From assembly GCA_037893225.1 (NCBI GenBank), contig JAZGUH010000199.1, positions 1,984,001-2,048,000 on the forward strand: a stretch of 64,000 nucleotides of DNA, written 5' to 3'. Each line of letters begins with the position of its first letter. The stretch's first letter is position 1. The notes below the pieces were generated by a model that saw only the letters and a list, made by a program, of their open reading frames with translations, had not been told where the DNA came from and did not search any database. This DNA is from Hippasteria phrygiana. Taxonomy: Eukaryota > Echinodermata > Asteroidea > Valvatida > Goniasteridae. Positions 877-32,821 of this stretch are shown here, piece after piece. Position numbers and translations under genes: made by a program.

Positions 877-945
877 CGTTTTTTCCAAAGAAGCAGGCGT
901 TTTCTAAAGTCATCGTCTCTGGACAAGGCGGGCAGACCTCACCGA
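877..945 (-). CDS. Exon 23: short Cys-rich exon, possible start of NTR domain
   Basis: It is a 69-base exon in phase 1 at both ends with acceptor TTTGAATAG and donor GTAAGA, and it joins exon 22 in frame as Leu. It reads GEVCPPCPETMTLENACFF, so C-x2-C-x9-C. A C-x2-C...C start is seen in the NTR domain that follows the second Kunitz in WFIKKN. Too short for a firm domain call. Confidence 0.55.
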
Positions 946-3900
946 CTATTCAAAGAATTATAGACAGGAACAATCGTTTTTTGAGCAATCAATCAGTATT
1001 GTTCATTAGCTAATATAAACAAGCTTTTTTGCACAGTCTGGACATAGTATTACATCACTACTATAAGTACTTTCTCAATCTTATAACATCGTGCGACTTC
1101 ATAATCACTTTAGCTGTTTTCTGCTTTGTGTTTTTTTTTGGGGGGGGGGGGGAAACAGATGCATTTGATGTCCACAGCACCACAAGCCTCATTTGGCATG
1201 TTCTGTGTTCACAACACTTGTGCTCCATCCTTAACTAAGCTCTTGGAACTCAAGTTGCAGTATGCGTACACCCAAGCCCTTCATTGTGCGATTTTCATAT
1301 GACAGTGTGTAACACTGTTGTGAAAAATATTTAATGCGATTTCATTTTTCGGAGTTGTAGGACAAAAAAGTAGGAAACAGTGGGGAAAAAATTGGAATTT
1401 CAAGAAAAAAGTAGAAGCAAGGTAAAAAAGAATAATAATAATAAAAAATTGTTTGACTCACGGTAGCAGCTTCGCAAGCACTCGTTCACCATCTCAAAAC
1501 GATTTTGGTTGCTCCGAGAACCGCCACACCCGCCGTAGTCGAAGGGCTGACACAACTTGGTGTCTGAGTTGTAGGTCCAGTACGGCAGCGCCAAGTTGCA
1601 CGGTCCGACCTCACCGGGCGGGTCGTTGCAGAAGTTCCCTGACGACGGCAAGATAAACGAATATAATATGTGACCGCGTCCTACAGAATGAGTGTTAGCA
1701 CAGGTTGTTTTTTCATGCACTCGATAAAGTATACTCACCTGTGCACGTACATAGGACTTTACGGCTTTGTTAACTATGATCTTCATAATGTAAGATTGTG
1801 TCAACTTCCAGATACAAATACCATTTGCAGGGAATCATACTCTTCTTAAAGTGGTGTTAACCTTTAGATCCAAATACATGACCTCGATCTATGGATGGTG
1901 CATGATGCAAAACACTCGTACTGTACTTCTTTTCTGGATCAATATGACATTACACTTATGGAGAGGGTGGACTGCACATGAACTTGCACGCCAGGGCTGT
2001 AGTCGAGTCTTCATCCGAGTCCGATGCAAAAACGGTGAAAAAGTAGACTGAAGTCCACAGCGAGTCCAAAACTCACAAAACAAGCTGTAATCTGGACTTG
2101 ACTAGAGCCCTGGTTTGCAGCAAGATTCAAAAGTACGAGTCTGGATCAATGGATCAATGGATCAATGGATCAATCAGCAAATTGACCAATCAATCAATCA
2201 ATCAATCAATTGATAGATCCACCAATCAACCAATTGACCAATTGACCAATTAATCAATTGATCTATCTATCAATCAATCAATCAATCAAACAAGCCATCA
2301 ATCTATCATAGCCCGGCAAACCTACTTGAGCAGTTGCCCTCACAGTACGCTATGGACTGAAAGCCTCCCTCCGGCAGGCACTCATCGCTCTTCACGGCAC
2401 TGCAGCCGATCACACTCGGGTCCGGATTGTAATAGAAAGGCTTCTCACTGTTGGGGCAGGGGGGCGAGTCCTCCCCCATGACGATGGGACGGGAGAAGCA
2501 CAGACTACCTTTGGATCCCAACAAAAAAATGGAAGACATTTATGGATCACCTCCGTTCACAACTCTAGCAATGTTTCATTTTGGAAGCCTTTATACGGGC
2601 AGTAGTTTGATCAACAACTATTTTGATACAGTGGGATTCTCTTTTTTGTTGATAGATAAAATCATAAAATTCCATTTGTGAATCGGTGGTTAGGCAGAGC
2701 ATATTAATACATGCCATAAGTGTTGTGCAGGTTTGCAAGGCCTGAAGGATAAACCCAGAAGATTCTACTTTACTACATTTCTTGCTAAAGTGTGAAATGT
2801 TTCCGAGTGTGTGGTGTCACCGTAGGCATGACATTCCATATTATCAAAACAATGGGGCAAAGATGTTAAAAGTAATACCGTGAGCACACGGGCCATTGAA
2901 AGCTTTCTTGAGGGACGTGTCTCCCGCCTGGCAGGCAGTGACTGCAAGGATACAGTCGCTGGGGTAATCTCGGGCATCGGTGCCGCACACCGGTCCGTCA
3001 CCGTTAGCTGGTGGTGGGGGGCAGTCTGCCTCGGCCAGGCAGCTTGAGCATGCTGGCCCACCATCCACGAGGGTGCACCGCCAGCCCAGTGGACACTCCT
3101 GATCTAGGCAGGGATCTGTCGGGGAATGATGTGAAGGCAAATTACGGGAGCACCAAAGATATATACACTGCTGAGGTCTGGTGTTAAATTCACGCCATGT
3201 GGCATATTTTGTAATAATTCAGCATTAATTACATTGATTTTACATCGATTATTTCACTTGAAGTTTATGTTTTCTTTTCTTGGGTTTATTTTAAACTTGA
3301 ACTTAATTGTTTAATCAAGGGGGCCTGGCCAGCCTCCTCCATCCATCATCTAAATTTTGTATATAGGGGCCTATGTAAGTTAAAATCATTGTAAGAATTG
3401 TAAGAATGATGCATGGAAATAAATGAAATGAAATAAAATAAATTCGTCAAACAATCCACAAGGGAAACTGACTAGGTAAATTTGAATACATTTTCGAAGT
3501 GAACAAAGAAACTGGCAGGAGCGGGATTCGAACCTGCGACCTCCGGGTTACCGTACCGGCGCTCTACCAACTGAGCTATCTTGCCCTATGTTGGCGGTCT
3601 CCCAAATTGTCAGTATCTTTGTTCGGGTGGGCGCTAGTTGAATCCCGCTCCTGCCAGTTTCTTTGTTCACTTCGAAAATGTATTTAAATTTACCTAGTCA
3701 GTTTCCCTTGTGGATTGTTTAACGAATTATAAGTTAAAAAGTCGTATCACTCATTGAGTGATCCCCACAATGATTCCCAGGTTGTATCGTAAAATTGGGT
3801 GTGATCCCTGGCTATACGGCATTCTGGGTTCATGACTTCTGACTAGCGCCCACCCGCACAAAGGTACTGACAATTTTGGAGACCGCCAACATAGGGCAAG

Positions 3901-6900
3901 ATAGCTCAGTTGGTAGAGCGCCAGTACGGTAACCCGGAGGTCGCAGGTTCGAATCCTGCTCCTGCCAGTTTCTTTGTTCACTTCAAAAACAAATCAAATC
4001 AAATCAAATCTGTATTGAACCATTTGTCCAATGAAATACCATGTGGTGTTAATAAACACCAGTTTTAGCAGTGTAATAGCGTCTTGTATACTGAAGGACA
4101 ACCATAGCCACAGTTTGAAAAAGACAACCTGGCATGTTGTCTTATATACGCGCATTTCTGCGCATACTCAATCCATTCAAGTTCAACTATATTGTTCTTA
4201 ATTGAATGGGAGTATAAATTAATAGATGGAGCTTTTTCCCTTGTGAAATCGTATCAAGCCCCTCCTTTCCCCGTAAATAAATGTTTAATCAATCAATCAA
4301 TCAATACACAAACCTATACACCATATAAAATGAAGCATGGACAGTTTTACAGCATTCTGAGGCATCATCAGCTCAACTAACATGCATTGCCTTTTATAAT
4401 ACCCACGTACGTGCTCTAAAGTTTCAGTGAGGTCTTCTGCGTCTTTCGGCCATACATGAAATCTTTACCTGCGCACGTGGGGGGTCCTTGCGGTTGAGAC
4501 CACGCCCCGTCACCCATGCAGTCAACTTCCCGTGATCCAGAGAGCACCATGTTGTCCGGGCAACTGACGATGACAGCTGTTCCTATGGCAACTGGTTCAC
4601 CAACAGCACCGGGACTAATGGTGCCTCCGCTTGAAAGATTCAGTGCTGGACAGTACACAACTATTAAAGAATTAAAAATAGACAATTGATTTTCTTTTTA
4701 TGGAAGTCGCCCAATACAAAACTAAAAATCACTCTAGGTATAAAGGGCTACAACAGAGGTGGTGGGGTTGGCCACATTTTAGGTTGCCAGACCCACCAAC
4801 CTTACGGTTTTCCTGGGTCCAGATCTAATAGGGGATAAATCTTCAATAGATACCTAAGAAATTATCCCAATTTTCAGACCTATAGACCCGGACGGCATAA
4901 CGTCCACCGTTTGTGAGACCATGCAACTCCCTACCCCATTTCATAAGTACATTTTAATATTAATTTCTGAATCCTCCAATTTCGCTACGATTTTTCACAC
5001 CACCTAGGGAGTTAAATATCTTGCAGACCGCCGTTTTTTTTTTACATACACCATTATGGACACAGATGCACACTCCATTCATTTTCACTGCATTTCCGGA
5101 TCCGGATGACATCACATACACTCACGCAGAGGATAATCTGGATTAATCATTCTTTGAGAAAAGCCCGATCACAAACTCACCTATGCAGGTCGGTGATTGG
5201 CCGCTCCATTCCCCATTGGCCTGGCACTGCCGCTCCTGAACACCGTCTAGCTCGTAGAGCTCGGCACACACGTACGCTGCGATCGAGAGGTAGTGATTGC
5301 CTCTGGACAACACAAACGAGCCATTGGAGATCGGTGCGGGTGTCTCACACGGACCTAATCAATTCAACCACAGATGGCATCGACTGATCTTTTATTCGGT
5401 TCAACTATGCCACGTAAAATTGAAAAACTGCCACGTCCTTGCTCCGAATGAAAAGGTCCCTTTACTAATTTATTTTCCGCACTATGAATAAACATTAGCA
5501 CTCACTACACCGTGCGGTGCATTTGGTCTTAAAATAGAAACAGGAAATAGATAATATGCTCGTACTATTGTGAGACGTGGTTATGCGTGAAAACTAGTTG
5601 AAGTGGATAAGAACAGATTTTTGCCCCCACGGTGCTAAGCACTGTATGTTCATTGCTACGTACTGCTCCGAGAGTCTAAATACTAAAGACAAGGTTGCAG
5701 AAGGTCGTAGGTACTATTCCTACCCAAGTAATAGCCTGTGGATTTTTTTTTTCCAACAGATTTTTGGAAAAAATTGATCAGGGTCAAACTTTCTGTAATT
5801 TTCATTACATGTGCATCTTTCACACTGAAGTGGATGTTTAATACACAGTTTCTTCAACAAACTTACTGATGACAAGGAGTGTGACCGACTTTGTTTCAGC
5901 CGCCGTTCCGCAGACGTACTGTCCAGCGAAGTCTAGGGTCACATTGACCAATACTAACCGAAGCAGATCTGTGTCTCCATAGTCTATCAGGCGCCGGTGC
6001 GCTGCCATGGATATCCTATACAAAGTCCAGAAATCTTTTTTTACGGAAATAGTTGTAATGTTTGACGATGAGTTAACAAGGCTAAAAAGATCAGGACAGA
6101 TTCAGACAAGCTTCAACATTTACTCAGAGGATCTCAAGAACGAACATATTGTGAGTTTAAGAATTTCCACTTTTTTAATTCTCTCTCATGAGCATCTGAA
6201 CCTTAAAAACCAGGTGAATATGTAATGTTGCCGTGAAGAAAACATCGCAGCGATTTCACCAGTCCGCCATGCCGCACACTCGGTCCATTTCGTTCACAAA
6301 CACTTCACGGTCAAATCTCACAGCACTGACTTTCAGAATACATACAGTAAAAGGGTGCAGCCAGTGATACCCAAGTGAGTAGCCTACCATTCTTCGTTGG
6401 GTGTTAGCCTCGACCAACCAAGAATACCGGCATTGGACAGCTCGGCTGTGCCATGCCTAGACACATCAAGACAATCCAAGAACACGGAGGTTCCTGTCCC
6501 AGACAGCACTTCGGAACCATCTTGCAGGGCCTTCCCATTCTTGTATACAGTGAGTTCAACATCTGCTCATACCAAGAGAAAAACGAAATCGGTTATTTTT
6601 TTTTTCAGCTCACAGAATTTTAGGTTCTTTTTTTTTTTTTTTATTGGGAAAATGAGCCTGATTTGTTGATGAAAACAGGATTTGGGAAATGTTTAGTTGA
6701 TGGATTTCATTAAAGCATGTTTAGTTTATGGTTTGGGTAAACACCCGACGTTTAAAGCTACGCTCTTACTGAAATTTTCAACTTAATGTCCTCCTGCTAA
6801 CAAACTGTGGAAATGAACTGGATTCCTGAATTTAAAAACTATACTATTTGATCTTCTTCATCACATAGATTGTTCTAATAAGTTCGAAACGTCAGGCCAG

Positions 6901-9900
6901 CTAATTTTTTAATAATAATCCGCATTTAAGAACACTCAAATTGCAAACTATATCACAGCGCTTACAATATTATTATTACCCCTGCTCATCAGGCCGATTA
7001 ATCATTCCTGAAACCTTCTCATAACTCCCTGGGGAGTATACATCCCGGCACATGGGCTAATCAAACACATAGCCACCACTGCCATCACAGGTACTCATTT
7101 ACTCCTGGGTGGAGAAAAGCAACTTGTGACAAAGTGCCTTGCTCAAGGACAACAAGCACCCTGACCCCAGCCGGTCTCGAACCCACAATCTGTAGTATAT
7201 ATCACCAAGATCTTGATTCCGGTACACTTAGCCACCGGCACTCCACATTTCATTAAGTGCAAATATTGAGATATGTTAATACTTTAGGAATTAGGAGCAG
7301 GCTGTATATCTTAATTGACTTTGGTGGTACCATTAGCCCCCAATTGAGACCCGTAAAGGCATAAAAGATCCCAAAAGGGTTGCTGCTTTGCGACTGTTTT
7401 GGCATAAAAGCGAAGCAAAAAAGAATTGTCAACTAAAAGCAGAGGGATGGGGGTTTGACCCTTGCACCTTGAACACACTCGGGGAAAGCGTTGCTCCATC
7501 CATCTGGAGAGCATCGTGTTCGACTCTCTCCGTGCAGCACAAATCCATCGTCACAGTCGAATGAGATCACATCGCTGTCATAGTACGCCAGCTTCACTGT
7601 AGACGGGTCTATGTTCCCGTTGAGAATGGCAGGGGGATCACGGCATCTTACTGTTAAGGAAAAGAAACAGAAAAATTGCTGTGAATTCTTGTAATCTCTA
7701 AAATATCAGGGGTACAAAAAAAAATTGGACTAGAATTGATCCCCACAATGTTGCTTCCCATAGGTTGTATCGTAAAGTTGGGGAGTGATCCGTGGTTATA
7801 CGGCATTATGGGTTTATGACTTCTGACTAGCGGCCCCGAACAAAGGCACTGACAATTTGGGAGACCGTCAACATAAGGAGGGATATCTCAGTTGGTAGAG
7901 CACGGGTACGGCATTCTGGAGGTTGCTGATTCAAATCCCACTCCTGCCAGTTTTCTTTGTTCGCTTTAAAAAATTCATTACTAGAATCTGGAGAAAAATC
8001 ATTCAGTTTTGTCCCTAATTGCAGGAAATTAATAAAATTCACACTAAAGATATACCGAACAATTATTTTGCTTTCTAAAATGTTATTTTTCTAGCAATAC
8101 AAAACTTATTCACTTATGCATGAGACATCCAACAAAATAAATCCAGCCCCGTTTAGGGTCAGGTCATGTCATTATCTGAACGTTTCGTGTAGATGGCGCG
8201 TATACTATGCATCGACATTCCCAACACTTTGATGTTATCATCAAGAAACTAAACTGTGCATTAATCGGCCCTACATTCATTTCTCCAAAGTCGTAAGCAA
8301 GAGCCGGGCAATCAATGGATATTTTACCCATGATGTTGAGATTGATCTTCTCGCCATAGGACCCGTCAGAGCTGGTACACAGGTACATTCCCGAAACTTC
8401 AGCGCTCACTTTCGCTAAAAGCAGTACTGCATTGCTCCCAACGTTATTCACTTCTTGTTCCAGTATCTGAAATGTCAAGCACAAAGTGCTGTCAAGTTAC
8501 CTACATTGGATGAACATGATTTATTTTTGGGGGGGAAGGGGGCATGCAGGGGAAGTGGGTTCAACATATCCCGATGGTTGGGGTTGGAAGTTGCCCTCAT
8601 CACCTTGTAGCAAGTTTTTTTTTGGGGGGGGGGGGTGGGGCTTATTTTTTTTGGGGGGGTGGGGCTTATTTTTTTTCGGGGGGTGGGGCTTATTTATTTG
8701 GGGGGGGGGGGGGGGTTGGGGCTTTCTCGAGTGACTAGATCAGGCTGTTTATTGACCTTGTGGGTGAATTTTTCTTGTCTTTTGCTTAAACAGTCCGAGA
8801 CTTCGCGAAACCTCACACTGAGGAAACCACAGACTTTTGTGACAGGATTCTGACCAAACGTCATATAATAACCAAAATGTGGGTTGTTGTAAGGTGCGAC
8901 AGTCATTTTGCACAACCAATGAGAATATCACTTTGTGTGCGCCCAATTCCTTTTTTTTTGCCTTTACAAGTTAAAAAATATCTGTCCGGCCTAACCATCC
9001 CCTGCAAAGATTCCTAAATCAGCCTGTTACTAGAAGGCACAATGACTATGAACCAACAGTTATAACAAAGAACTGAAAAAGAATTAAACTGCTGCAAACT
9101 GCTGACTGACTGAATGGACCTGAAATATACAAATCAAAAAATTAGCTGGCCTGACGTTTCGAACTTAAGCAAGTTCTTTCTCAAAGGTGAATGACAGAGT
9201 ACAAGAAACAAACATGTAGGGAACACAGATGCATGACAGGGTGGGTGGAGAAACACAAAAGAGGGATGCAAAGGAGCATGGCAGATAGGCAGTGGGTGAA
9301 CATCAAAGGGAGAGGCAAGGACAGCCAGGATGACAGGAACAAAGAGGTGTGATTAGGGTAAGGAGGGATTAAGATGAAGGTAGAAGCTGGGGAATTGGAC
9401 AAAGGAGTGTGGTTCAGGGAAGGGGGGGGGGGTTTGAATTGAAGGTGGTAATAGGGCAAGAAAAGGAACAAAGAGAAGTGGCAAGGATAAACAGGAAATG
9501 GAAAGACAACACCATTTGGCCAAGAGACCCCAAGAGGGTTTTGCCAGGAGGATAATCTGTAAACAAATGACAATGGGGGAACAAAAATTTGAAGTTAATC
9601 ATTCCCTTCCTGGATGTTGAGACCATGTGGTTGAATAGTCCGAAGACGTTTCATCCAAACTTTCTCTCGGCTGAGGCGAACTGACTCCTTGCGGTGACAG
9701 TTTTACAATATTTATATCAGTTGCTTAACAATTATGCATTAATCCCACATGCTTTTATTTTTGATATTGTATTGTATTTATAATGTATTGTATTGTACAT
9801 GTGTGTAGTCATTTGTATTGCATGCAGGGCCCCAATAGAAACCAGTTTTTGAAACAACGTATCATCAATAAATGTGTCTGAAAAACCCATGATTATGCTT

Positions 9901-10146
9901 ACTTCATGGTCCTTTATTATTCTGAACCACCTCGGCTGTAACTCAGTCCCTTGCTGATTGCAGTTTACCTCCAATGCATCGCCGTCAAAGACAGAGATGT
10001 CGCGCCGCTCGATCAACACATTCGCTGTAATCGTGATCATGTTTGCACCTTCATTTGGAGATCAGAAATACACAAAATTATGATGTTGCTGTCATAAGAT
10101 GTACCAATTAATGTACCAATTACCCAAAACCCAAAACCCAAAACCC

Positions 10147-10178
<32 letters not shown>

Positions 10179-16100: not shown

Positions 16101-19100
16101 TGTCTGGTCTGATCACCATGCAGTAGTTCACGCCTCTTCAGGCACCTGTAAGTGATGGTCTCACCGTAGTTGAAGACCAGCCTGGATGTGGTGAGACTCA
16201 GACCACTGGTTAAGATGCTCGGTCGAGTACAGGTTGCCACTGTAGGGATGACCACACACTGTTAAGAGTGACTGCACGTCATGCACTCCACTACCATATC
16301 CCAGAATCCTCAATACTATGATTAATGCTTATATAGTTGCAGGTCAAGCCTACCTTCACAGATCGGTGGAGGGATACTCCATATTAACCCATCCAGGCAC
16401 TCGGCCGAGTCCAATCCCCTCAGATCGTAACCTTCTGGGCACTCGAAGGTCACTCGAGACCCAATGAGGGCGAGGTCGTCTGATAATGTGATGGTACCCT
16501 CCTCAAAGTCAGGAAGGGGGCAAGTCTGGGCTGTAGAGTTGCACACAAGTAACAAACAAAACGACATGATTAATTCAACAGGTATTAAGGCCTTTCTGTT
16601 GAATAATTCAACAGGTAAGGTTCATGGCTCGTTATGGTACTCTCTCCAACTAACATAAAAATTATGTATCTTTCACTTTTTTTATTATATACGGTGTTGG
16701 ATAGATATTTTATGAAGTTATAGTTTAAATTTGTTTCATTACATACGACATTTATATTGTAAAACAATTAGGGACCACAGACAATGTGAATGAATTGAAT
16801 AAATAAAAAAAGAAACATTAAAGTACGAAATTAGGTTTATAACAAAATTAATCAAATTCTGAAGAGTCACGTTAATGAAGTATGAACAGAAGAAATGGTA
16901 GCAAGTACCAGACGATTACAACTCTGGCAAGTACAGAAGCCTAAATTTTTTTTTTTTTCCATTAGGCCATGGACAACGTAAATTGAAGACAATGACAAAA
17001 TACAAAAAGATTAAACGGAGAAGGACCGAGAAAGGAAACAAGTGTCTGAAAATTACATACAGAAATATTTTCCGAATGGTGTGAATTATTACCTCATTGT
17101 TTTTTTACACAACCAAATAATTGAAAATGGAAAGAATAAAATGAGTCTTACGTTCGCAGGTAGGTACACCATTGTCCCAGTTTCCATCAAACAAGCAGGT
17201 GCGGGTTGCAGTGCCGTTAAGGAGGAATGATGCAAGACATTGGTAGGTGATGGTTGCCCCGTAACTGAAATCCAATGACGTCAGGAAGCCGTTGCTTGGT
17301 GAACCAGGACTCCCGCACTTCATTTCTGTTATATAACAAAACCTGGGCGGTCATCTTGGTGTCGTGTTGGGTTCTTAACTGATCCTCACCTCCCACCTCG
17401 GCTGACCCCGGTTCGGTTCCCTTCCTGGGCCCCAAATTTTCAAATTCTGGTTTAACCCCCTTCGGTGTTTTTCATATGGTCCTGCTAAATCCAACAACTT
17501 CTAACAAAATTGAAATGAGAAGCCTGCTAAATACCGTAAATCCAACACCAAATTTGGTTGGATTCTGCAGTGTACCACCTACACACCAGCCTGCTGAATC
17601 CAACAAAATACAACAGGTATTTGTTTGTATGAGCCCTGCCAAATCAACACTAAAATGCTTCCACCCTCCTGAATATGACAAACTCAAAACATATATATTT
17701 AGCTGCAACCCTGCTGAATACAACAATATCCAACACACCATGTAGTTTGTGTTGACTACCAAATCCAACAAATTACAACACCTTACCATTGTTGGATTTT
17801 GTTGGACTTAGCGGGGTTAGGGTTAAGGTAACAAAATTCTAGTTTAGGCACTTGACACCGTACAAAACGAAGACAAATTGTCATTTGAAGTACATCAATT
17901 ACATTCTATAAACCCTTGTACAACGAACCAGGCAATCTTTTTATTGCAAGATATATGCAGTTTTTCACCCTTAAGGATTCCACACTTACTGACGCATTCG
18001 ATCTCGAGTGGTTCCCATCCCACCCTGGGGATGCAATGGATGCTCGTCTGCCGTCCAATCACGGCGAAAACATCCAGACACTCATAGTTAGCCTCACTTC
18101 GGTCCCCCATCACCACAACTTTGCCATTCATTAGGGCTTCTGGCTCAGACGTACAGTCAGCCTGAACGTCAGCTAGTTAACACAAAGCCAACAAATAATT
18201 CATCATCTGATAATGACTTCAGATTCCAGGCAAGAAGGTTTTGATGACAATTTTCAAAGATTTTACCACAAACCATAAAAAGGCAAAAGTACTGAATTAT
18301 TACGAAATACCATACTAGACTGTAAGTAAATAACAGTATCATAACATCCTGTGAAATCATGGCACCTGTTGTGCTGTCGATTTCAAGAAAAGTGGAAATT
18401 TATCGTTTTCCAACGATTGCCGGCCGACAATCGTTGGAAATGGTCTAGTTTCCCTGACCAGATAATTCACTGACTCTATAAATTGCTCCATTAAATTTTG
18501 CCTGGAAAGTATGGTCAGGGAATTTGACTACAAGAACATTTTTTTCTTTTTCGTACACAAAACTTTAAACAGGTCAGTGTTACAGTATAGAGCACCGAAG
18601 TGATGACGTCAATGCAATGTTTGGAACCAGAATATTTTTGTTATGTTTGCATGACTGGCTGTTAACAAAGGAACAGTCGAAATTTACATTTGTTTGGAGC
18701 CAGTTGTCACGCCAACTGATGTCAGACTTTGGTACTCTATTTGCTAGCACGCTATAAAATACTAACCCCAAATCCATTTATTTCTGAAAATTACAGCAAA
18801 AGCAAATGGTGTATACTAACTTTATTACCCCCACCAAAATCGGTTAGGAACAGAAAAATCATATGAACCGATCTTTCTTGATAAACTGTCTAAACATGTG
18901 GCACAACCAGGTTTGTTCAAACTTTATGTCAGCAAAATCTGTAACAAAAAAATGAGGCAGAAATGAACGTGTATGTGAATATAGGAAAACCACTGACCAA
19001 ACTCTGTGCCCAGAACATAACAAAAACTTTCTTCGAAAATTTTCTGACAAAAGTCTCAAAATTAAAGGTTGTACCATGCGTTTGTACAATTCTATACATG

Positions 19101-22100
19101 AATGGATGGTTATTTTCTAAGATTTTCCTGATCAATTTTGATTGGAGGTATAGGTAAAAATTTTCCTTTTCAAAGTGAACAAATAGGTACCGTGAGGTTC
19201 ACAGGAACATCTTAGAAAATAGCCAACCCGATTGTCCGTGGCAGAACCCGTGTACTAGAGCCATAGCATACTTGTCCCTTGGTCCATGGTATGACTATGA
19301 CATGTGACCATCTGACCATACAAATTACAAGGACGTTTCCATACTATTGCCAAGAACACCCAGCACAGTAAACACACACTTTTTGGTAATCAATAAATCA
19401 TTACCTTAGGACACCTCTATTTCTTTTACGAGTTCCGTTCAAAACTAACTTTTGCAGACGACTTTACAGTACCAAAGTGACTTTTGCAGGCTAAAGTAGT
19501 TTTTTTTCTTGAGATTAACTCATGTTTGTTGTAATTTTGAAATGCACTTTCAAAGAAAATGTGACTTTCCTACCTTTTTTTGCAGTCAGAGACATTGCCG
19601 TTTTACCCAATAATTTCCCTCATAAATCAAAACCCTGCCCTCTTTCCACAACATTAAGCTTGCTCATATTCAACATGATATCTTAGCGAACTATTATGAT
19701 TCCAAGCACACAGAGGCACTTTTCCTGCCTGTACCATCGCAAAATATTGAATAAACTGTCTCCTTCGTTCTCTTAAGTTATATGGAACGGGGTCCTAAAG
19801 GTAACGATTACCGAATCTTGGATGTTTTCGTCAGATAATTCTGTTCCTCATTCGTTTTTCAATATACCTTTAGCGACCGTGCCGTGTTGACCTTGCAGGT
19901 GTCAACGGTTTTTAATATACAACAATGTGCTTGAAAAACAAAACATTGAAACAAAGGTGGATAACTAGATATTATTATTAAAACAGTGCATTTTTGCCTG
20001 GGTTCACAAGATAAACTAAAAACACGATTGCCTCCGTCTCCATATCCTTGCTGACAACATTAACACAATTTGAAACGACGTCAGGATACCGTCTGCACGT
20101 CCGGCGCGCCAGACTACAGTGACACGCCATGGTTTTATGCGTTTCTGATTGGACCGCTTCACGCACGTGACGCCTTCTTTCGACTGCGCACACTCCGTGC
20201 TGGTTCATTGCAGTGGCATGCACCAGCCTCTGTACTGATACCCGGTGTTTTCATTGATAGGCCTATATCCAGTTTTATGGTTACAAATCATTTAATCGAA
20301 TAGGAAGTGCAAGTTCCCTCTGTAATTGATATTTAGATAAAAGACATTTAGATGAATTAAACTGCTGCAAACTGCTAACTGACTTGAGTGACTAAAATAT
20401 GCAAATCAACAACATAAGCTGACCAAGGGTTTCGAACTTAAGCACCAAGTTCTTTCTAGAAAGAACCTGCTTAAGTTCGAAACGTTAGGCCGGTTAATTT
20501 TGTTCACCTGTTGTAACGTTTTGTACTCTTGTAACGTTAAAGTGGCAGTGCCTTTGGCACTAAGCGTTCGTTCTAAAATTGCTATGCCATTGGAAAGACC
20601 ATTCAAATTGTATAATGTTGGCCGACACTTTCCCTTGAAAATACGCCCAGTCTGCAACAATTGACGAAAATAATTTCGGGGACACCAGTTTGGTTCGGAA
20701 ACGGTCGGACCTAGGCTACACTATAGGTGCGGCGCCAATCTGAATGACCGAAAATCAATGCTTCTTTTTTCCCCCACACAAATTTTCGTCGTAAATATTA
20801 CACATTGTGGTAGAATATTTGCACATACCTTCAAGTTGGAAACAGGTAAGATAACTAACCAAAGAGATTAAATTATGGAGATTTTAGGGCAGCGGCGTAG
20901 CTACTGGGGGCGTAACCCCCCCCCCCAAAAAAAAAAAATCGTCACCCCCAGTCTCACCTCCCCACTGTAAATTTCGCAAATGCAGAAAATAATAGTATTA
21001 TTAAGAAAAAATACTGTCAGCCCCCCCCCCCCCCCCCTCCCCCTCCCCCACTCGCGCCCCTAGGCCCTATGGAGAGAGCCCTGGCTATTTCAGAGTAATG
21101 CCCTTGCAAGTAGACGCATTAAAAGCTATACCGGTAACTCATTTGAGTATTAATTGGTACCTCGTGCACCAAAACAATGAGAAACATAAAGGTAAGGGTG
21201 AGAAATAGAGTTGGGGTTTAGGATAGGGTTAGGGTTTTCATTATAAAAACCACAATTTTCTTGCAATGCGCCATGGGTATATATACAAAGAGTCGGATAT
21301 TCATGGGAGTCAGATTTTCATATATGACACTAGCCTCTGCACTAGTTTCAAAGCGGGAAGACGGCGTCTGTCATTAAAATAATCGACTCTTCGAATTAAG
21401 TTTTCCAAAGACATTGCAAACTGAAGAAACTTACGACTGAGGCAGTGCGGTGGGCCATTTTCCCACTGCCCATTGGACATACACGTCGACTCCTCGTACC
21501 CTATTAACTCGTAGTCTAAACTACAGCTGAAGTGGACGATCGTACCGAATCCCCCTGGCACTGAGGAACCCTGGGGTGGAGTCAGCCACATGATTCCGTT
21601 GCTAGGCGAGTCCAGTGGTAGCTGGCACGACCAAGCTTGACCTTAAAGAAAAACGCGGGAAAAATCGTGCAAACGATTAACTGAAAACAACATGCGTTCA
21701 TTAGTACACGCGCATCAAATTGAATTGTACATTTCAGTTTAGTAATAATTATAATATAGAAGTATAGGTTTTGCCAGAGCAGATCACATAGGCTTAAGCC
21801 TATGTGATCTGCTCTGGCAAAACCCGACGCTTCTCGGCATTTCCCATTAGGCCTACGCGGTATGGGCTCGCATAACGTTAAAAATGGCATCAGTGATACC
21901 AAAACCCCAATATTGAAATTTCACCCCATGTTTGGGTTTTGCTAGAGCTGGTCACAAATTTCAATTGGGGTTTTGGTATCATGCCATATTTTTAACGTTG
22001 CGGGCCCATACCGCTCAATGGGAAATGCCGAGAAGCGTCGGGTTTTGCCAGAGCCGGTCACATAACTATTTGAGGACCAGTTGTAAGTGATATTTTAGAT

Positions 22101-24147
22101 ATGAATACCTTTTGAGGGGAAATGTTCGGGTTTTTTAATGGGTTGGCTACTAATTAAAATAATGTTCATCATACCAGTACTTACTTATAATAACACAACT
22201 GAGCCCGCATCTGCCGTCACACACACACTGCTCAACGCCATCACAGTCGGCGTTGTTTTGGCAGACCGCTTTACAGACGTGACGCAGTGAGTAGTACTGA
22301 TCTCGTTCTGGGCATTCTACAAAAAACGACCAAACAGCGATGACTAAATGGACATAGTTGCGGGTGTTGAACAATGACAATATTTTTCAAGTTTCAATTT
22401 TGGTTAATTTCATTTTCAAACCTCACAAAAAATCCAACCGTGAAGGGAACAAACCACAAGGGAAACGGACTAGCGCCCCCCCCCCCCCCCAACAAAAGCA
22501 CTGGCTATTTGGGAGACGACCAACATAGGGCAATATAGCTCAGTTAGTAGAGCACCGATACGGTATTCCGGAGGTCGCAGGTTCAAATTCCGCTCCTGCC
22601 AGTTTTCTTTGTTCACTTTGAAAAGTAAAAGAAATGCAATGATTTTGTCTTCAGTGAGAGTCATCTGAAATGGGACATGTAACGATGCCCCTAACAGTGG
22701 GGTTAAATAATAGCAGAGTGGAAATCAATACAATTTTTTGAATCAAGCTTGAGGAATTTGGAATGGACAAACACAAATTAATAAGGATGTATACAATCCT
22801 TTGAAAACATTAAGCAAAAGTGTTTACACAAGGTATTTCTGACTCTACTATTGGAAAGCACCGAAAGTTTCTTCGAAACTAAGCAAACAGGAAAGACACG
22901 GGACTCGACACGTACCGGTACAAAAGCAAAAGTGTTTACACAAGGTACTTCTGACTCTACTATTGGAAAGCACCGAAAGTTTCTTCGGAACAAAGCAAAT
23001 AGGAAAGACACGGGACTCGACACGTACCGGTACAATAACACTGGACAACAATTTCTTGCTTTGTTTAGACTAGAAAAGAGCTGATTATAATGAAATGGTC
23101 GATGAAAGAGTACCGGTAATGAAAAGGTTGGTGATTATTAAAGTAAGAGGTCACTGGAAGCAACAAATAATCCGCAATATAATAAAACCCGGAGTCGTAT
23201 TCTAATTAATACCCACTTGTGGAAGAGTTAATTTAAGTAAGCGCCGTCCGTGCCACAACAGTTATAAAAATGCTTCTCTAATAAGCTTGCATGCAGAGTC
23301 CGTCAGCACCCTTATGAAAAAGTACTACCGTAGGCCTAATCATTGATATGCACTCTAAAAACTGTGTTTAGCAATTAAACACAATCTTGCTATCAGTTTG
23401 TAAACATGTTTAGAAGCTAAACATTACGTCCAATTCCTAAACATCAATGTTCAATGGCTAAAACACTGTCCGTCAACACTCTAAATACATTAAGTATTTT
23501 AACATAGGGCCTATTTACAAAATGTGAAGATGGAATTATTTTTGCGTCGGGGATGATAATGTAAATTAGAACAGAGATATTTACAAAATGATAGCAAAAA
23601 GTGTTTAGAAAAGTGTTTATAATAATTATTTGCTAAACACAGTTTAGTGCAGTGTGGTCGTTACCACGGTAAATCCATTGTAAAGACCATGTTCAAACCA
23701 TGACCGTGGTATGCGTGGCATGGTATATTAAGCACTTATCCAGAACCACCAAAATGACATCGTCGCGCGCACGCGCCTTGTGTGCCTATTCAATAAGGCC
23801 TTGTGCATATTCAATAAGGCCTAGTGCATTTTCAGTAATACATGACGATGTCATTTTGGTGGTTCTGGATACGTGCTTACCGCATGGCATACCTTGGTAC
23901 TGATGTTACCATGATAAATCCATGGTAATACCGTGGCCAATTTACCATGGATTTTGCACCATTTACCACGGTTTTACTATGGTACTTTTTTCATAAGGGT
24001 GTAGGCAGGGATGAGTACATTTACAAAAGTTAATAATATAGCACCTTCCTCAGCCGAATCCTGGTCACATAACACCGTCCCCCAACAATGCAGTAAAACG
24101 GACACTGCGAACACCAGTAGAACCGTCCCCGAAAAAAATCCTGCCAT
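877..24147 (-). CDS. Secreted WAP/CCP/Ig/Kazal/Kunitz multidomain protein, WFIKKN-like ends (23 exons, 3' end not reached)
   Basis: This is an extracellular mosaic protein of at least 1288 residues. Rough residue positions are signal peptide 1-26, WAP 36-77, CCP1-6 at 79-452, Ig1 453-555, CCP7-8 556-688, Ig2 689-775, CCP9 776-836, Ig3 837-944, CCP10-11 945-1066, follistatin/Kazal 1067-1145, Kunitz1 1146-1206, Kunitz2 1207-1265 and a Cys-rich start of another domain 1266-1288. Every exon has GT/AG borders and the frame is open across all 22 junctions. Module borders are all phase 1; the only other phases are inside Ig2 (phase 0) and Ig3 (phase 2). WAP, Kazal and Kunitz are protease-inhibitor folds, CCPs are typical of complement regulators, and WFIKKN proteins bind TGF-beta family ligands; the role here is unknown. 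The plan WAP...Kazal-(Ig)-Kunitz-Kunitz-(NTR?) resembles WFIKKN with CCP/Ig modules inserted. The last exon or exons lie left of 877 or outside the window. Confidence 0.85.
1190..1423 (+). repeat. Dispersed repeat shared with 61195-61420
   Basis: Shared CTCTTGGAA, CACCCAAGCCCTTCATTGTG, ATATGACAGTGTGTAACA and GGGACAAAAAAGTAGGAAA-like blocks, same orientation. Confidence 0.7.
1462..1638 (-). CDS. Exon 22: Kunitz domain 2
   Basis: FCNDPPGEVGPCNLALPYW, then KLCQPFDYGGCGGSRSNQ, RFEMVNECLRSCY form a canonical Kunitz/BPTI domain with six cysteines and FDYGGCGG. The P1 residue is Asn, not Lys or Arg, so its target is probably not trypsin. Confidence 0.92.
2143..2297. repeat. ATCA/GGATCAAT simple repeat
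   Basis: GGATCAAT units grade into a long AATC run. In the intron between exons 21 and 22. Confidence 0.9.
2326..2508 (-). CDS. Exon 21: divergent Kunitz domain 1
   Basis: Six cysteines fall in Kunitz order: LCFSRPIVMGEDSPPC, 17 residues including KPFYYNPD, C-SAVKSDE-C, 11 residues including GGFQSIAY, C-EGN-C. The residue after the second Cys (P1 position) is Pro and the usual FxYGGC is absent, so inhibition of trypsin-like enzymes is unlikely. A lustrin-type Cys-rich module is a weaker alternative. Confidence 0.65.
2879..3115 (-). CDS. Exon 20: follistatin-type/Kazal domain
   Basis: DPCLDQECPLGWRCTL and GGPACSSC form a follistatin N-terminal hairpin. A Kazal core follows: ADCPPPP, GPVCGTDARDYPSDC, a second Cys in VTACQAG, and FNGPC. 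The VCGTD...Y...C motif is the Kazal hallmark. WFIKKN proteins carry the same composite module after WAP. Confidence 0.85.
3443..3735 (-). mobile_element. tRNA-derived SINE, inverted partial copies
   Basis: It contains the reverse complement of a tRNA-like box B (GGATTCGAACC near 3524) and box A, plus the SINE tail. It is followed head-on by a second SINE tail (3638-3735). With the next entry it forms a head-to-head pair. Confidence 0.75.
3740..3990 (+). mobile_element. tRNA-derived SINE
   Basis: The tRNA-like segment 3894-3967 has box A TAGCTCAGTTGG and box B GGTTCGAATCC, the pol III internal promoter. It is preceded by a conserved GTGATCCCCACAATG leader and followed by CAGTTTCTTTGTTCACTT. 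It is not a functional tRNA: the anticodon-arm pairing and termini are poor. Confidence 0.8.
4469..4660 (-). CDS. Exon 19: CCP domain 11
   Basis: VYCPALNLSSGGTISPG, VIVSCPDNMVLSG, VDCMGDGAWSQP and PPTCA give the four CCP cysteines. Phase 1 at both ends. This is the last CCP before the inhibitor block. Confidence 0.9.
4697..4940 (+). repeat. Dispersed ~230-bp repeat, copy 1 of 4
   Basis: Shared blocks GGGCTACAAC, TTACGGTTTTCCTGGGTCC and ATTATCCCAATTTTCAGACC. Others at 56322-56545 (+), 56795-57015 (-) and 60097-60330 (+). They sit in introns of both genes. Confidence 0.7.
5181..5354 (-). CDS. Exon 18: CCP domain 10
   Basis: PCETPAPISNGSFVLSR, AAYVCAELYELDG, RQCQANGEWSGQ and PTCIG form a textbook sushi module. 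Donor GTGAGT. The exon was found only by splice-site and cysteine reading. Confidence 0.9.
5867..6015 (-). CDS. Exon 17: Ig domain 3, second half
   Basis: LVLVNVTLDFAGQYVC is the D-x-A-G-x-Y-x-C end of an Ig fold, followed by SVTLLVI. It enters in phase 2 and leaves in phase 1, restoring the phase used between modules. Confidence 0.88.
6388..6562 (-). CDS. Exon 16: Ig domain 3, first half
   Basis: VELTVYKNGKALQDGSE, then VFLDCLDVSRHG and GILGWSRL supply the first Cys and Trp. It leaves in phase 2 (TG|GTAGGC), and the next exon completes a Trp codon. Confidence 0.8.
7468..7650 (-). CDS. Exon 15: CCP domain 9
   Basis: VRCRDPPAILNGNIDPS, VISFDCDDGFVLHG, TRCSPDGWSNAF and PECVQ match a CCP. Donor G|GTGCAA, phase 1 at both ends. 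Confidence 0.88.
7738..7972 (+). mobile_element. tRNA-derived SINE, diverged
   Basis: Same leader (GATCCCCACAATG), box A TATCTCAGTTGG, weak box B GATTCAAATCC and TTTCTTTGTTCGCTTT tail. It lies in the intron between exons 14 and 15 of the minus-strand gene. Confidence 0.75.
8328..8466 (-). CDS. Exon 14: Ig domain 2, second half
   Basis: AVLLLAKVSAEVSGMYLC provides the second Ig cysteine in an S-G-x-Y-x-C context, then a G strand INLNIM. It enters in phase 0 and leaves in phase 1. Confidence 0.85.
8615..8720. repeat. G-rich repeat, quadruplex-prone
   Basis: About four units of T-run plus G-run around GGGGTGGGGCTTATT, ending in an 18-base G run. In the intron between Ig2 halves. Confidence 0.85.
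9903..10024 (-). CDS. Exon 13: Ig domain 2, first half
   Basis: VFDGDALEVNCNQQG and ELQPRWFRIIKDHE give the first Cys and core Trp. The exon enters in phase 1 and leaves in phase 0; exon 14 enters in phase 0, which supports the pair. Confidence 0.8.
10127..10240. repeat. AACCCAAA / poly-A low-complexity tract
   Basis: ACCCAAAACCCAAAACCCAA followed by A runs. It lies just upstream of Ig2 exon 13. Confidence 0.85.
10330..10779. mobile_element. Non-autonomous element with ACCGGAAAAC subrepeats
   Basis: Ends GGTGATACTTTATACC and GGTATATAGTGTCACC are inverted. The interior next to both ends is built of tandem CTACCGGAAACCACTGGAAA-type repeats in opposite directions. Confidence 0.7.
10812..11018 (-). 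CDS. Exon 12: CCP domain 8
   Basis: NCLDAFLPDPAHGYS, SFQCMVGYRMLHNG, LVLTCRNGAWDGS and PSCVQ give the CCP signature. Phase 1 at both ends. The acceptor is CTCCAG and the donor GTAAGG. Confidence 0.9.
11677..11868 (-). CDS. Exon 11: CCP domain 7
   Basis: TCKDPGYQEGRSTNRDTT, VKFTCDTGYEMSG, IGCDIDGNWNHD and PDCVK form a complete CCP of 64 codons, phase 1 at both ends. Confidence 0.9.
12774..12887 (-). CDS. Exon 10: Ig domain 1, second half
   Basis: RLRLNDIAQSDAGLYKCIAG is the Ig hallmark D-x-G-x-Y-x-C motif, followed by a G strand ending in VQIQVI. Donor A|GTGAGT, phase 1. Confidence 0.9.
13073..13228. repeat. 12-bp minisatellite CGCTCTTGCCCC, about 13 units
   Basis: Perfect tandem CGCTCTTGCCCC units sit inside a wider pyrimidine-rich tract (12960-13480, CGTCTCGCTCTCG). 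It lies inside the intron that splits Ig1. Long open frames here are repeat artefacts. Confidence 0.92.
13609..13803 (-). CDS. Exon 9: Ig domain 1, first half
   Basis: ALVMLDCRVATSLGDPVWER holds the B-strand Cys and core Trp of an Ig fold. It splices in phase 1 to exon 10, which carries the second Cys. The intron between them holds a long CT-rich repeat. Confidence 0.8.
14332..14762. mobile_element. 431-bp non-autonomous DNA transposon
   Basis: Inverted ends GTGACCCGCTCTGCAAAAAG and CTTTTTGCAGAGCGGGTCAC are about 30 bases long. There is no coding content. It lies in the intron between exons 8 and 9. Confidence 0.8.
14906..15100 (-). CDS. Exon 8: CCP domain 6
   Basis: EICSVLQSRIAGGGSFSV, IYFCEEFHRMLGTSN, FFCKNGDWSSDQ and PRCEVD supply the cysteines and Trp of a CCP. 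Phase 1 at both ends; the single trailing T joins Ig1 as Tyr. Confidence 0.9.
16054..16239 (-). CDS. Exon 7: CCP domain 5
   Basis: VATCTRPSILTSG, ITYRCLKRRELLHG, RQCDEGGWWTGG and PSCHG match the CCP pattern. It is only about 110 bases downstream of exon 6 on the plus map, the tightest exon pair in the gene. Donor GTAGGC, phase 1. Confidence 0.9.
16354..16530 (-). CDS. Exon 6: CCP domain 4
   Basis: QTCPLPDFEEGTITLSDD, VTFECPEGYDLRG, AECLDGLIWSIP and PICEG give the four cysteines of a CCP. The exon is 177 bases, phase 1 at both ends, with donor GTAGGC. Confidence 0.9.
17152..17325 (-). CDS. Exon 5: CCP domain 3
   Basis: It reads KMKCGSPGSPSNGFLTS, then TYQCLASFLLNG, RTCLFDGNWDNG and VPTCE: a classic sushi module with all four cysteines and the Trp. 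Phase 1 at both ends. A broken partial copy lies at 32749-32821. Confidence 0.9.
17990..18172 (-). CDS. Exon 4: CCP domain 2
   Basis: CCP cysteines appear in DCTSEPEALMNGKVV, ANYECLDVFAVIG, SIHCIPRVGWEP and IECV. The acceptor after AACTAG gives the in-frame start PDVQADC; a second AG 11 bases downstream would bring a stop and is rejected. No counterpart was found in copy B. Confidence 0.85.
18587..18740. mobile_element. MITE, TAGAGTACCGAAGTGATGAC family
   Basis: Inverted ends TAGAGCACCGAAGTGATGAC and CAGACTTTGGTACTCTA. It lies in the intron between exons 3 and 4 of the minus-strand gene. Confidence 0.75.
20340..20520. repeat. Dispersed GACGTTTCGAACTTAAG repeat (copy A)
   Basis: AATTAAACTGCTGCAAACTG at the left, then GCTGACC..TTTCGAACTTAAG and CTTAAGTTCGAAACGTTAGG. 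Relatives lie at 33855-34015 (copy B), 9068-9185 and 6880-6905. Confidence 0.65.
20530..20705. repeat. Dispersed repeat GCCTTTGGCACTAAGCGTTC (copy A)
   Basis: Matches 34125-34300 in copy B, and in reverse 43330-43490 and loosely 45400-45600, through TTGAAAATRCGCC and GACGAAAATAATTTCGGGGA blocks. Confidence 0.6.
21435..21641 (-). CDS. Exon 3: CCP/sushi domain 1 (copy A)
   Basis: The four CCP cysteines lie in SCQLPLDSPSNG, VHFSCSLDYELIGYEES, TCMSNGQWENG and PHCLS, with the conserved Trp before the last Cys. Phase 1 at both ends. It differs from the copy at 35080-35286 by two bases, both synonymous. Confidence 0.9.
21772..22070. repeat. Nested palindromes
   Basis: A perfect hairpin (GCCAGAGCAGATCACATAGG and complement) sits inside a larger foldback whose arms contain GATACCAAAACCCCAAT and ATTGGGGTTTTGGTATC. 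Copy B (35405-35670) lacks the first arm of the inner hairpin. Confidence 0.8.
22185..22316 (-). CDS. Exon 2: WAP four-disulfide core domain (copy A)
   Basis: It begins ECPERDQYYSLRHVC and contains eight cysteines in WAP spacing: C, 12 residues, C-KAV-C, five residues, C, then CVC, DGR, C-GLS-C. The usual adjacent CC pair is replaced by CVC. The exon is phase 1 at both ends, with acceptor TTTTTGTAG and donor GTAAGT. WAP domains are usually serine-protease inhibitors or antibacterial. Confidence 0.75.
   Translation of the reverse strand, partial: NAQNEISTTHCVTSVKRSAKTTPTVMALSSVCVTADAGSVVLL
22460..22626 (+). mobile_element. tRNA-derived SINE fragment (copy A)
   Basis: TAGCTCAGTTAGTAGAGC and GGTTCAAATTCC boxes with the TTTCTTTGTTCACTTT tail. 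The same insertion is present in copy B, so it predates the duplication. Confidence 0.75.
22811..23035. repeat. Two-unit ~113-bp tandem repeat (copy A only)
   Basis: AAGCAAAAGTGTTTACACAA to GACACGTACCGGTACAA, twice, almost identical. Copy B keeps only the first 45 or so bases. Confidence 0.85.
23727..23881. mobile_element. Palindromic MITE, same family, 9-bp target duplication
   Basis: Arms share AACCACCAAAATGACATCGT with 25127-25251. It is flanked by GCATGGTAT and GCATGGCAT. Absent at the matching place in copy B. Confidence 0.8.
24045..24147 (-). CDS. Exon 1: signal peptide (copy A)
   Basis: It starts at MAGFFSGTVLLVFAVSVLL, followed by HCWGTVLCDQDSAEE: a hydrophobic core, then a polar tail, typical of a secretory signal with cleavage near VLC/DQ. 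The donor is G|GTGCTA in phase 1, which joins the WAP exon as Glu. The paralogous exon at 37548-37650 differs by F4P. Confidence 0.8.
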
Positions 24148-25126
24148 GTTCCCCAAGACCAACCAGCCTTTGCAGTCATGTATGCAGAAGTTACATTCTT
24201 TTCCCCGTACTTTTCATTTTTATTCAGAAATGTCTTATTGATAGGTGATTGATAAAGGAATGTGGTTGTCACACCATTTGTATTATGAATAAAAACCAAA
24301 CCGGGCGTGTTTTTGTTTGGGACGCCGTCCGGTATTTATTTCAGGGATAATACAGAAAAATATGCAACACAACTGGAGGAATGTTTTGTTGACGAAAGAA
24401 ACTTGAATTATTTGCAACAAAACGTGGGAATCCGAACCATTGACCGACAGATTAGGCCTAAATGACAGGGCCGTCCAGTTGAAATCCCACATTACTCTGA
24501 GAACCACTCTATCGAACTTATTTTTACATATGGTTCGAACAACAGTTCAATTTCCCACGATGCAAAGTCTCAATTTTGATACTACAAGCCGGCAGTGATG
24601 CCATTTCTAGTTTCGGCAAACAAACAAAATCAGCATGAATGAATTTGATTTTTTTTTCTCAGGTCAGTTTCTAAGTAAATTGAGGGCGATCTTTGAAACA
24701 TTTAAATTCATGTTCTAATTGAAATTGACACTTTCTTCATAGGTAAATTGGGGGCGCTCTTCTGGCTTCTTTGACTTTGGTGGCGCCATTTCACTGCTAC
24801 TTGATGAGCAACTGAAAATAACTATGCCTATAATCAGATAATGGCGGGAAACTTTCTTGCATTGACGATTATTAGTAACGATTTTTGTTTTTGTTTGGGC
24901 ATGGCCCCTCTCCCCCATCCGTCAGTGGAACAAATTTTGTTTTTTCCGACATGAAAAATACATATAGGCATGAATGTGAAAAGTTAATGTGGCTCTGATT
25001 CAAGTATTTACAATAATTGCATTCAAAACTACAGTTGTTGAATCGCAGACATTCACTCTCTATGCATTCGATTTTCCAGAGGGAGTACGTTTCATTTTTA
25101 CTCAATGCTCACTTGACGTTCGAGAT

Positions 25127-25251
25127 GGTAAGCACTTATAAAGAACCACCAAAATGACATCGTCACGCGCATCGTGCCTATTCAATAAGGCATTGTGCAC
25201 TTTCAGTAATACATGACGATGTCGTTTTGGTTGTTCTGGAACAGTGCCTTC
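25127..25251. mobile_element. Palindromic MITE, 10-bp target duplication
   Basis: Inverted ends GGTAAGCACTT...AGTGCCTTC, with inner arms AACCACCAAAATGACATCGT and its complement, flanked by CGTTCGAGAT on both sides (25117-25126, 25252-25261). Copy B near 38950 has a single GTTCGAGAT, the empty site. The TSD length suggests a Mutator-like family. Confidence 0.85.
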
Positions 25252-25874
25252 CGTTCGAGATAGGCCTACCAGTAATTTCACCGAACTATAGCTGAATAGA
25301 TTACGTGACAGTCTATGGGGAAAATTCCCCCCCCCCCCCCCCCCCCAAAAAAAAAGTCTACTTTCGCCGCTAGCTGTGATGGCAGTTATAACGCACAGCG
25401 GAGCCAAAGGTCAAGTTTTATGTTCTTAAAAACATGATCAGGTTACAGAAAATCATGTCTCAATTCTGCAGAGCCGTGCACACTATAAATATTGCAAAAG
25501 GAATTAAGCATACAATGGATATCCAGTTCAACTTGTTTTCACGCCCATTATGTCTTACAAAACTACAAACATGCTAAATGTTAGGTTTTTTTTATTGAAA
25601 GTGAAAGTAGTGAAAGTAATGCCGTATAGTTCTATAAAACGTACGTATAGTAGAAGGCCTCGATTATATGAAGACCCTGATGAAGACATGTCTGTTCGCC
25701 TATTTATGCTTAGCACATTATTATATCCATTATGATCTATGAAATTGGGCCCTGAACTTAAGAAGCATTTGCTTGAACAAATGAACAGACAGCCAGACAC
25801 ACAGCCTGCCCGACAGCCCGCCCGACAGATACATTGTGCCACAATCAAGTAGAAATCTTCGTAAAGGCCTACGC

Positions 25875-26062
25875 TTAAGGCCAGTTTATACTTCACGCGA
25901 ATGCGAAGCGAATTTGACGTCATGAAACGTTCGCGGCGAAGATTCGCGTATCGCACAAGTTGAAATGTGTTCAACTTTTGCGAATTCGCAGCGCGAATAT
26001 TTGGCGTTGACGTCATAGATTCGCTTCGCATTCGTATTCGCGTGAAGTATGAACCGGCCTTG
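25875..26062. mobile_element. Palindromic MITE (copy A)
   Basis: Arms GGCCAGTTTATACTTCACGC and GAAGTATGAACCGGCC, with GCGAAGCGAATTTGACGTCA inside. The matching element in copy B is 39787-39957, lacking the outer left arm. Confidence 0.75.
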
Positions 26063-32748: not shown

Positions 32749-32821
32749 AAAATGAGTCTTACGTAGGTACATCATTGTCCCAGCTTCCATCAAACAAGCA
32801 GGTGCGGGTTGCAGTGCCGTT
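32749..32821 (-). pseudogene. Truncated copy of CCP3 exon
   Basis: It matches the 3' part of the exon at 17152-17325 (NGTATRTCLFDG, WDNDVPT) and the donor side, but seven bases that include the last Cys codon are missing. It stops abruptly where a palindromic repeat begins at about 32827. Confidence 0.85.

What the first reader, a model, noticed from the sequence alone, without database searches (positions are those of the whole stretch)
877..24147. Undescribed domain order: WFIKKN-like ends with 11 CCPs and 3 Ig domains inserted
Seen: 23 exons joining in frame give WAP-CCP6-Ig-CCP2-Ig-CCP-Ig-CCP2-Kazal-Kunitz-Kunitz-(Cys-rich). Known: WFIKKN proteins are WAP-follistatin/Kazal-Ig-Kunitz-Kunitz-NTR, with a first Kunitz that is divergent, as here. 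Inference: this is a lineage-specific expansion or fusion merging a WFIKKN-type inhibitor with complement-control modules. I know of no named protein with this plan.
Basis: partly seen in the sequence, partly recalled or inferred. Interest (0 to 1): 0.88.

Follow-up and report, generated by a model that had tools for sequence, protein, structure and literature searches.

The report
Starfish WFIKKN-like protein with complement modules
A starfish gene encodes a large secreted protein whose two ends resemble a known growth-factor-trapping protein, with eleven complement-type and three antibody-type modules between them; the same order occurs in two other starfish, where databases call it SVEP1-like.

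Summary
On the minus strand, 24147..877, 23 GT-AG exons join in one open frame of 1296 codons: signal-like leader, WAP, CCP x6, Ig, CCP x2, Ig, CCP, Ig, CCP x2, follistatin/Kazal, divergent Kunitz, Kunitz, and the first exon of a further domain. It is one conserved gene: Acanthaster planci P0001 (60% identity over 100%) and Asterias rubens P0002 (48% over 90%) align in the same order. So both ends are WFIKKN-type. But the Ig that WFIKKN carries between Kazal and Kunitz is absent, CCPs are foreign to it, and domain-level descent is unproven: only the second Kunitz matches WFIKKN2 strongly. Databases name the orthologues SVEP1-like, yet Pfam shows no VWA, EGF or pentraxin domain in them. Most likely role (inferred): a secreted GASP-like trap for a TGF-beta-family ligand, placed by a CCP/Ig arm; both Kunitz domains look unsuited to trypsin inhibition. 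New variant of a known kind; interest moderate.

The parts
24045..24147 (-). exon 1: start codon and hydrophobic leader (signal-peptide-like), phase 0-1
   Evidence: leader judged by eye, no signal-peptide program run
22185..22316 (-). exon 2: WAP four-disulfide core (8 Cys by eye), phase 1-1
   Evidence: Pfam PF00095 22.2 bits scanned alone; 66% identical to Acanthaster
21435..21641 (-). exon 3: CCP/Sushi 1, phase 1-1
17990..18172 (-). exon 4: CCP 2
17152..17325 (-). exon 5: CCP 3
16354..16530 (-). exon 6: CCP 4
16054..16239 (-). exon 7: CCP 5
14906..15100 (-). exon 8: CCP 6
13609..13803 (-). exon 9: Ig domain 1, first half (internal intron phase 1)
12774..12887 (-). exon 10: Ig domain 1, second half
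   Evidence: I-set 26.2 bits for Ig1 alone, cut-off 23.7
11677..11868 (-). exon 11: CCP 7 (80% identical to Acanthaster, the highest of the exons)
10812..11018 (-). exon 12: CCP 8
9903..10048 (-). exon 13: Ig domain 2, first half (internal intron phase 0)
   Evidence: 'ig' 25.5 bits in the whole protein, best stretch 707-771; below cut-offs when Ig2 is scanned alone
8328..8466 (-). exon 14: Ig domain 2, second half
7468..7650 (-). exon 15: CCP 9 (best Sushi stretch of the protein, residues 786-842)
6388..6562 (-). exon 16: Ig-like domain 3, first half (internal intron phase 2)
   Evidence: no Pfam hit alone; profile match to Ig1
5867..6015 (-). exon 17: Ig-like domain 3, second half
5181..5354 (-). 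exon 18: CCP 10
4469..4660 (-). exon 19: CCP 11
2879..3115 (-). exon 20: follistatin/Kazal module (10 Cys by eye)
   Evidence: Kazal_2 28.9 bits in the C-terminal piece; the Acanthaster counterpart finds follistatin and agrin at about 40 bits in the PDB
2326..2508 (-). exon 21: divergent Kunitz A; residue after the second Cys is Pro in all three species
   Evidence: no Pfam hit; weak AF2 model whose 50 listed fold matches, of 116, are Kunitz-type chains, none significant (best E 0.27)
1462..1638 (-). exon 22: Kunitz B; P1 position is Asn here and in Acanthaster, Asp in Asterias
   Evidence: PF00014 45 bits; alignment
877..945 (-). exon 23: first exon of the C-terminal NTR domain; donor at 877, rest outside the window

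Best explanation
One starfish gene encodes a secreted mosaic protein: WAP-CCP6-Ig-CCP2-Ig-CCP-Ig-CCP2-follistatin/Kazal-Kunitz-Kunitz-NTR. Shown by sequence: the exon chain, the conserved order in three starfish, the NTR end in two orthologues. Inferred: it works like WFIKKN/GASP, as an extracellular trap for a TGF-beta-family ligand, the follistatin module holding the mature ligand and the NTR domain its propeptide, while the CCP/Ig arm places the protein on a matrix, cell or complement-coated surface. Neither Kunitz domain is expected to inhibit trypsin by the canonical loop. Confidence in the gene and plan is about 0.95; the stated figure is for plan plus mechanism.
Against: No binding or expression data. 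Against recalled human WFIKKN2 follistatin and WAP match only weakly (hhalign probability about 61 each), NTR hardly (14; 30% over 67 columns), and Kunitz A not at all with its counterpart Ku1 (0.12; 11.65 with Ku2). The follistatin module does not find 6maa at E up to 1, and the WFIKKN1 Kunitz 2ddi is not among the 60 shown of 130 matches. Pfam passes 10, not 11, Sushi stretches in P0001, and 10 in P0002, which lacks most of CCP1. The Ig between Kazal and Kunitz is missing. Follistatin modules also occur in agrin and SPARC, so a module does not prove a ligand. CCPs are 11 of 19 modules, so the main role may lie there.
Confidence: 0.4

Rival explanations
1. It is mainly a complement regulator: the six-CCP run binds a C3b-like protein and the other modules are structural.
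For: 11 CCPs, six of them contiguous; three consecutive CCPs are the usual minimal regulatory unit, the regulator motif pattern was reported in Echinodermata, and human polydom (SVEP1) was shown to regulate complement (PMC6683126, abstract and sections); a CCP-VWA gene and a trypsin-type exon lie in the same window.
Against: CCPs also occur in proteins of other functions (PMC6683126 abstract); the published motif pattern could not be scanned, because the sections read give the motifs as a figure only; five of the eleven CCPs lie in runs of one or two, set off by Ig or Kazal modules.
Confidence: 0.25
2. It is a structural or adhesive protein of the extracellular matrix without a specific ligand-trapping role.
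For: Large secreted mosaic; Kunitz P1 residues unfit for trypsin; the follistatin module resembles that of agrin, a matrix protein, as much as that of follistatin.
Against: The C-terminal modules are conserved about as well as the best CCPs (to Acanthaster: KuA 72%, NTR first exon 70%, Kazal 67%, KuB 61%; CCP7 80%, CCP5 74%), which fits specific binding but does not prove it.
Confidence: 0.2
3. On origin, not exclusive of the functions above: the likeness to WFIKKN is convergence. Phase-1 modules were assembled independently (an epaktolog), not by altering a WFIKKN gene.
For: Every intron at a domain border is phase 1, so such modules can be joined freely; weak or absent domain-level match to WFIKKN2 except Kunitz B; sea urchin already has a GASP of 657 aa, reported to lack the follistatin domain (PMC3427181, section read).
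Against: WAP at one end and follistatin/Kazal-Kunitz-Kunitz-NTR at the other, with a degenerate first Kunitz, is the WFIKKN order apart from the Ig; repeating it by chance is unlikely.
Confidence: 0.35
4. Two neighbouring genes were joined by the reader and by automatic annotation.
For: RNA evidence was not available here; P0001 and P0002 are taken to be computed gene predictions.
Against: Same order in three genera, with in-frame junctions throughout.
Confidence: 0.04

Closest known systems
P0001 (Acanthaster planci) and P0002 (Asterias rubens), deposited as 'sushi, von Willebrand factor type A, EGF and pentraxin domain-containing protein 1-like'
   Same: Same order over the alignable length; 60% and 48% identity. 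These are taken as the orthologues.
   Different: The deposited name does not fit: Pfam lists no VWA, EGF or pentraxin domain in either at E up to 1. P0002 as deposited lacks the leader, WAP and most of CCP1. Pfam passes 10 Sushi stretches in each.
WFIKKN1/WFIKKN2 (GASP2/GASP1)
   Same: WAP first; follistatin/Kazal, two Kunitz and NTR last (PMC3427181).
   Different: GASP is 482-657 aa in deuterostomes (PMC3427181) with one Ig between Kazal and Kunitz; here no Ig there, but 11 CCPs and 3 Ig between WAP and Kazal.
SVEP1/polydom
   Same: Many CCPs in a secreted protein.
   Different: No VWA, EGF or pentraxin domains here; the SVEP1 domain list is taken from its name.
Papilin
   Same: Kunitz and Ig modules, in flies also WAP (PMC3427181).
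   Different: No thrombospondin repeat or PLAC domain listed, and an NTR end instead; those papilin domains are recalled.

Membership tests
WFIKKN/GASP | N-terminal WAP domain | tested here: met
   PF00095 22.2 bits against cut-off 20.8 in the window piece alone; not listed for the whole window protein, and 16.6 bits, below cut-off, in the Acanthaster piece
WFIKKN/GASP | One follistatin/Kazal module | tested here: met
   Kazal_2 25.6 bits; follistatin and agrin hits in the PDB for the Acanthaster module
WFIKKN/GASP | One Ig domain between Kazal and the first Kunitz | tested here: not met
   Kazal exon is followed directly by the Kunitz A exon, and the two modules adjoin in both orthologues
WFIKKN/GASP | Follistatin/Kazal directly after WAP, no CCP modules | tested here: not met
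   11 CCP and 3 Ig domains lie between
WFIKKN/GASP | Two Kunitz domains | tested here: met
   Kunitz B by Pfam; Kunitz A rests on a weak model with non-significant but uniformly Kunitz-type matches (50 listed of 116) and on its six conserved cysteines
WFIKKN/GASP | C-terminal NTR domain | tested here: met
   In the two orthologues; the window holds only its first exon
WFIKKN/GASP | Module-by-module descent from WFIKKN | tested here: inconclusive
   Against one recalled human WFIKKN2: strong for Kunitz B, weak for WAP and follistatin, near nil for NTR and Kunitz A; no invertebrate WFIKKN could be fetched
WFIKKN/GASP | Binds GDF8/GDF11-type ligand | not testable with these tools
   needs protein
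SVEP1/polydom (deposited name) | VWA, EGF and pentraxin domains | tested here: not met
   none in the Pfam scans of the window protein, P0001 and P0002 at E up to 1
Complement regulators (RCA) | At least three contiguous CCPs | tested here: met
   CCP1-6
Complement regulators (RCA) | M5-M3-M1-M2-M4 motif pattern (PMC6683126) | not tested
   motif matrices not in the sections read
Papilin | Thrombospondin repeats and C-terminal PLAC (recalled) | tested here: not met
   no such Pfam hit at E up to 1

The most novel reading that the evidence does not exclude
A starfish GASP-type gene took up CCP exons from a neighbouring complement-type gene (a CCP-VWA gene lies about 25-30 kb away, and one of its CCPs resembles CCP3 and CCP5 about as much as these resemble each other), giving a protein that couples trapping of a TGF-beta-family ligand to complement-marked surfaces, for instance at wounds or in regeneration.
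Probability: 0.1. Interest if true: 0.65.

Novelty: new variant of a known kind. Interest (0 to 1): 0.42.

Why it matters
It is a clear case of a domain plan built from phase-1 modules and then kept across three starfish genera, and it exposes a misnamed family: the public name SVEP1-like hides a protein whose ends are WFIKKN-type. If it binds a myostatin/GDF11-type ligand or a C3 fragment, starfish, which regenerate well (general knowledge), would offer a test of whether growth-factor trapping and complement were joined in one molecule.

Tried and rejected
Two genes joined by mistake: rejected on conserved order. A CCP-CCP-Ig cassette copied in tandem: not supported, because the introns inside the three Ig domains are in phases 1, 0 and 2 and the best CCP pairs within the gene are CCP9-CCP10, CCP3-CCP5 and CCP1-CCP7. 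CCPs taken from the neighbouring CCP-VWA gene: CCP3 scores 56.7 both with CCP5 of its own gene and with the neighbour's CCP at 58 kb, and the tree joins that CCP with CCP5 at 96/92, but it has only 63 columns for 37 rows and 17 of 34 inner branches open; five of the six neighbour CCP pieces were given to it. Left as an idea. Naming the neighbour factor B: its second VWA piece finds PTMP1 and integrin alpha-M (3 matches at E up to 0.1), not factor B, in the PDB. Left open. The CCP profile was built from this gene's own CCPs, so its matches inside the gene are by construction and are not used as evidence.

Protein searches: one search gave 7 proteins among the 7992 candidates scored: P0001, P0002 and five whose listed domains are CCP-type (P0003 unnamed, P0004 CUB/Sushi-type, P0005 factor C, P0006 factor B, P0007 unnamed). 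Search for canonical WFIKKN or orthologues in other echinoderm classes: (alignment A1) gave 10 proteins, the named ones agrin-like, dipetalogastin-like, hypothetical or uncharacterised; one search gave only P0001. One search did not recover even P0002, which is in the database and within the allowed length, so these absences mean nothing. PDB sequence search with the NTR tail profile: 0 matches. Print: the searches listed no paper whose title or abstract start describes this domain plan (listings capped at 8 to 20 rows). Beyond listings I saw: PMC3427181 (abstract, section 4 part 1, sections 9 and 12), PMC6683126 (abstract, sections 6, 8, 16), and passages of PMC6071037, PMC4967905, PMC2874008, PMC3906830 and PMC10381214.

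Full report
What was checked. The finding claims 23 in-frame exons at 877..24147 with the plan WAP-CCP6-Ig-CCP2-Ig-CCP-Ig-CCP2-Kazal-Kunitz-Kunitz-(Cys-rich). I located each module on the minus strand, listed splice sites around it and chained them. In one search one acceptor for the CCP2 exon broke the frame; the alternative acceptor at 18172 restores it. The result is 23 exons, 1296 codons, no stop, with phase-1 introns at every domain border; the three Ig domains are each cut once inside, in phases 1, 0 and 2.

Domains. Pfam gives 11 Sushi stretches, Kunitz, Kazal and Ig families for the joined protein. WAP passes its cut-off only when scanned alone, and in the Acanthaster piece it stays below it (16.6 bits). 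Ig1 passes alone; Ig2 alone stays below the cut-offs; Ig3 alone has no hit but matches Ig1 by profile comparison (probability 86 one way, 79 the other). The first Kunitz has no Pfam hit; a model of mean pLDDT 60, the other four models at 35-37, matches Kunitz-type chains in all 50 rows listed of 116, none significantly (best E 0.27; a few rows are recognised as Kunitz from recall, not from their titles).

Conservation. The protein search found P0001 of Acanthaster planci and P0002 of Asterias rubens. Alignment shows the same order throughout. Per exon, identity to Acanthaster runs from 43% (CCP9) to 80% (CCP7). Pfam passes 10 Sushi stretches in each orthologue rather than 11: P0002 lacks most of CCP1, and in P0001 one CCP falls below the limit although 84 of 85 window cysteines are kept there. 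tblastn of both proteins against the window gives the exons in collinear order; for Asterias the two Ig2 exons fell below the threshold. In most exons the window is closer to Acanthaster than Asterias is, so the window most likely comes from a starfish; the species is unknown.

Relation to WFIKKN. [quoted passage not shown] Two lancelet papers say that lancelet WFIKKN keeps the vertebrate plan (PMC6071037, PMC4967905, passages). The starfish protein shares the two ends but not the Ig between Kazal and Kunitz, and carries CCPs. In the PDB the follistatin module does not reach WFIKKN2 6maa, and WFIKKN1 2ddi is not among the 60 shown of 130 matches to the C-terminal piece.

Mechanism. In WFIKKN1 the follistatin domain binds mature myostatin and the NTR domain its propeptide (PMC3906830, passages). 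Both module types exist here, hence the inferred ligand-trap role. In Kunitz B the residue at the P1 position is Asn (window, Acanthaster) or Asp (Asterias), followed by Leu or Gln; in Kunitz A it is Pro. From general knowledge (trypsin-inhibiting Kunitz domains carry Lys or Arg at P1) neither is expected to inhibit trypsin. The CCP/Ig arm may give surface or complement contact; this step is conjecture.

Surroundings. The 5' part of the gene is duplicated in direct orientation upstream. A plus-strand CCP-VWA gene runs off the right end, and a plus-strand trypsin-type exon lies at 26.9 kb. The searches of print named in Tried and rejected listed no description of this plan.

Noticed in passing
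32749-40280 against 17138-17218 and 19813-26435: Direct tandem duplication, pieces at 76-90% identity, holding a second copy of the leader, WAP and CCP1 exons and a piece of CCP3. The WAP copy has a 2-base insertion that breaks its frame; the CCP1 copy differs at 2 of 207 bases, both silent, far fewer than expected from its surroundings (10.6% assumed; P 2.7e-8). A false duplication from two haplotypes is not excluded.
   Followed up: partly
48551-62951, plus strand: Gene with four CCP pieces above the Pfam cut-off (54363, 55548, 57386, 58023), two below it (48551, 52490) and VWA pieces (59487 below, 62694 above), apparently running off the window; layout recalls complement factor B, not confirmed.
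   Followed up: partly
26856-27302, plus strand: Trypsin-type serine protease exon, PF00089 64.5 bits, with GDSGGP; upstream exons not sought.
   Followed up: partly
31534-32258, plus strand: Broken Tc1-type transposase in two frames (HTH_Tnp_Tc3_2 31.8 bits; DDE_3 27.2 bits, below its cut-off of 28.6), about 0.5 kb from the edge of the duplicated stretch.
   Followed up: partly
3513-3585 (minus), 3895-3967 (plus); similar stretches at 7737-7983, 22507-22624, 39130-39531, 53770-53996: Dispersed repeats; at two places ARAGORN reports tRNA-Thr (similarities). They look like a tRNA-derived SINE rather than ordinary tRNA genes (inference).
   Followed up: partly
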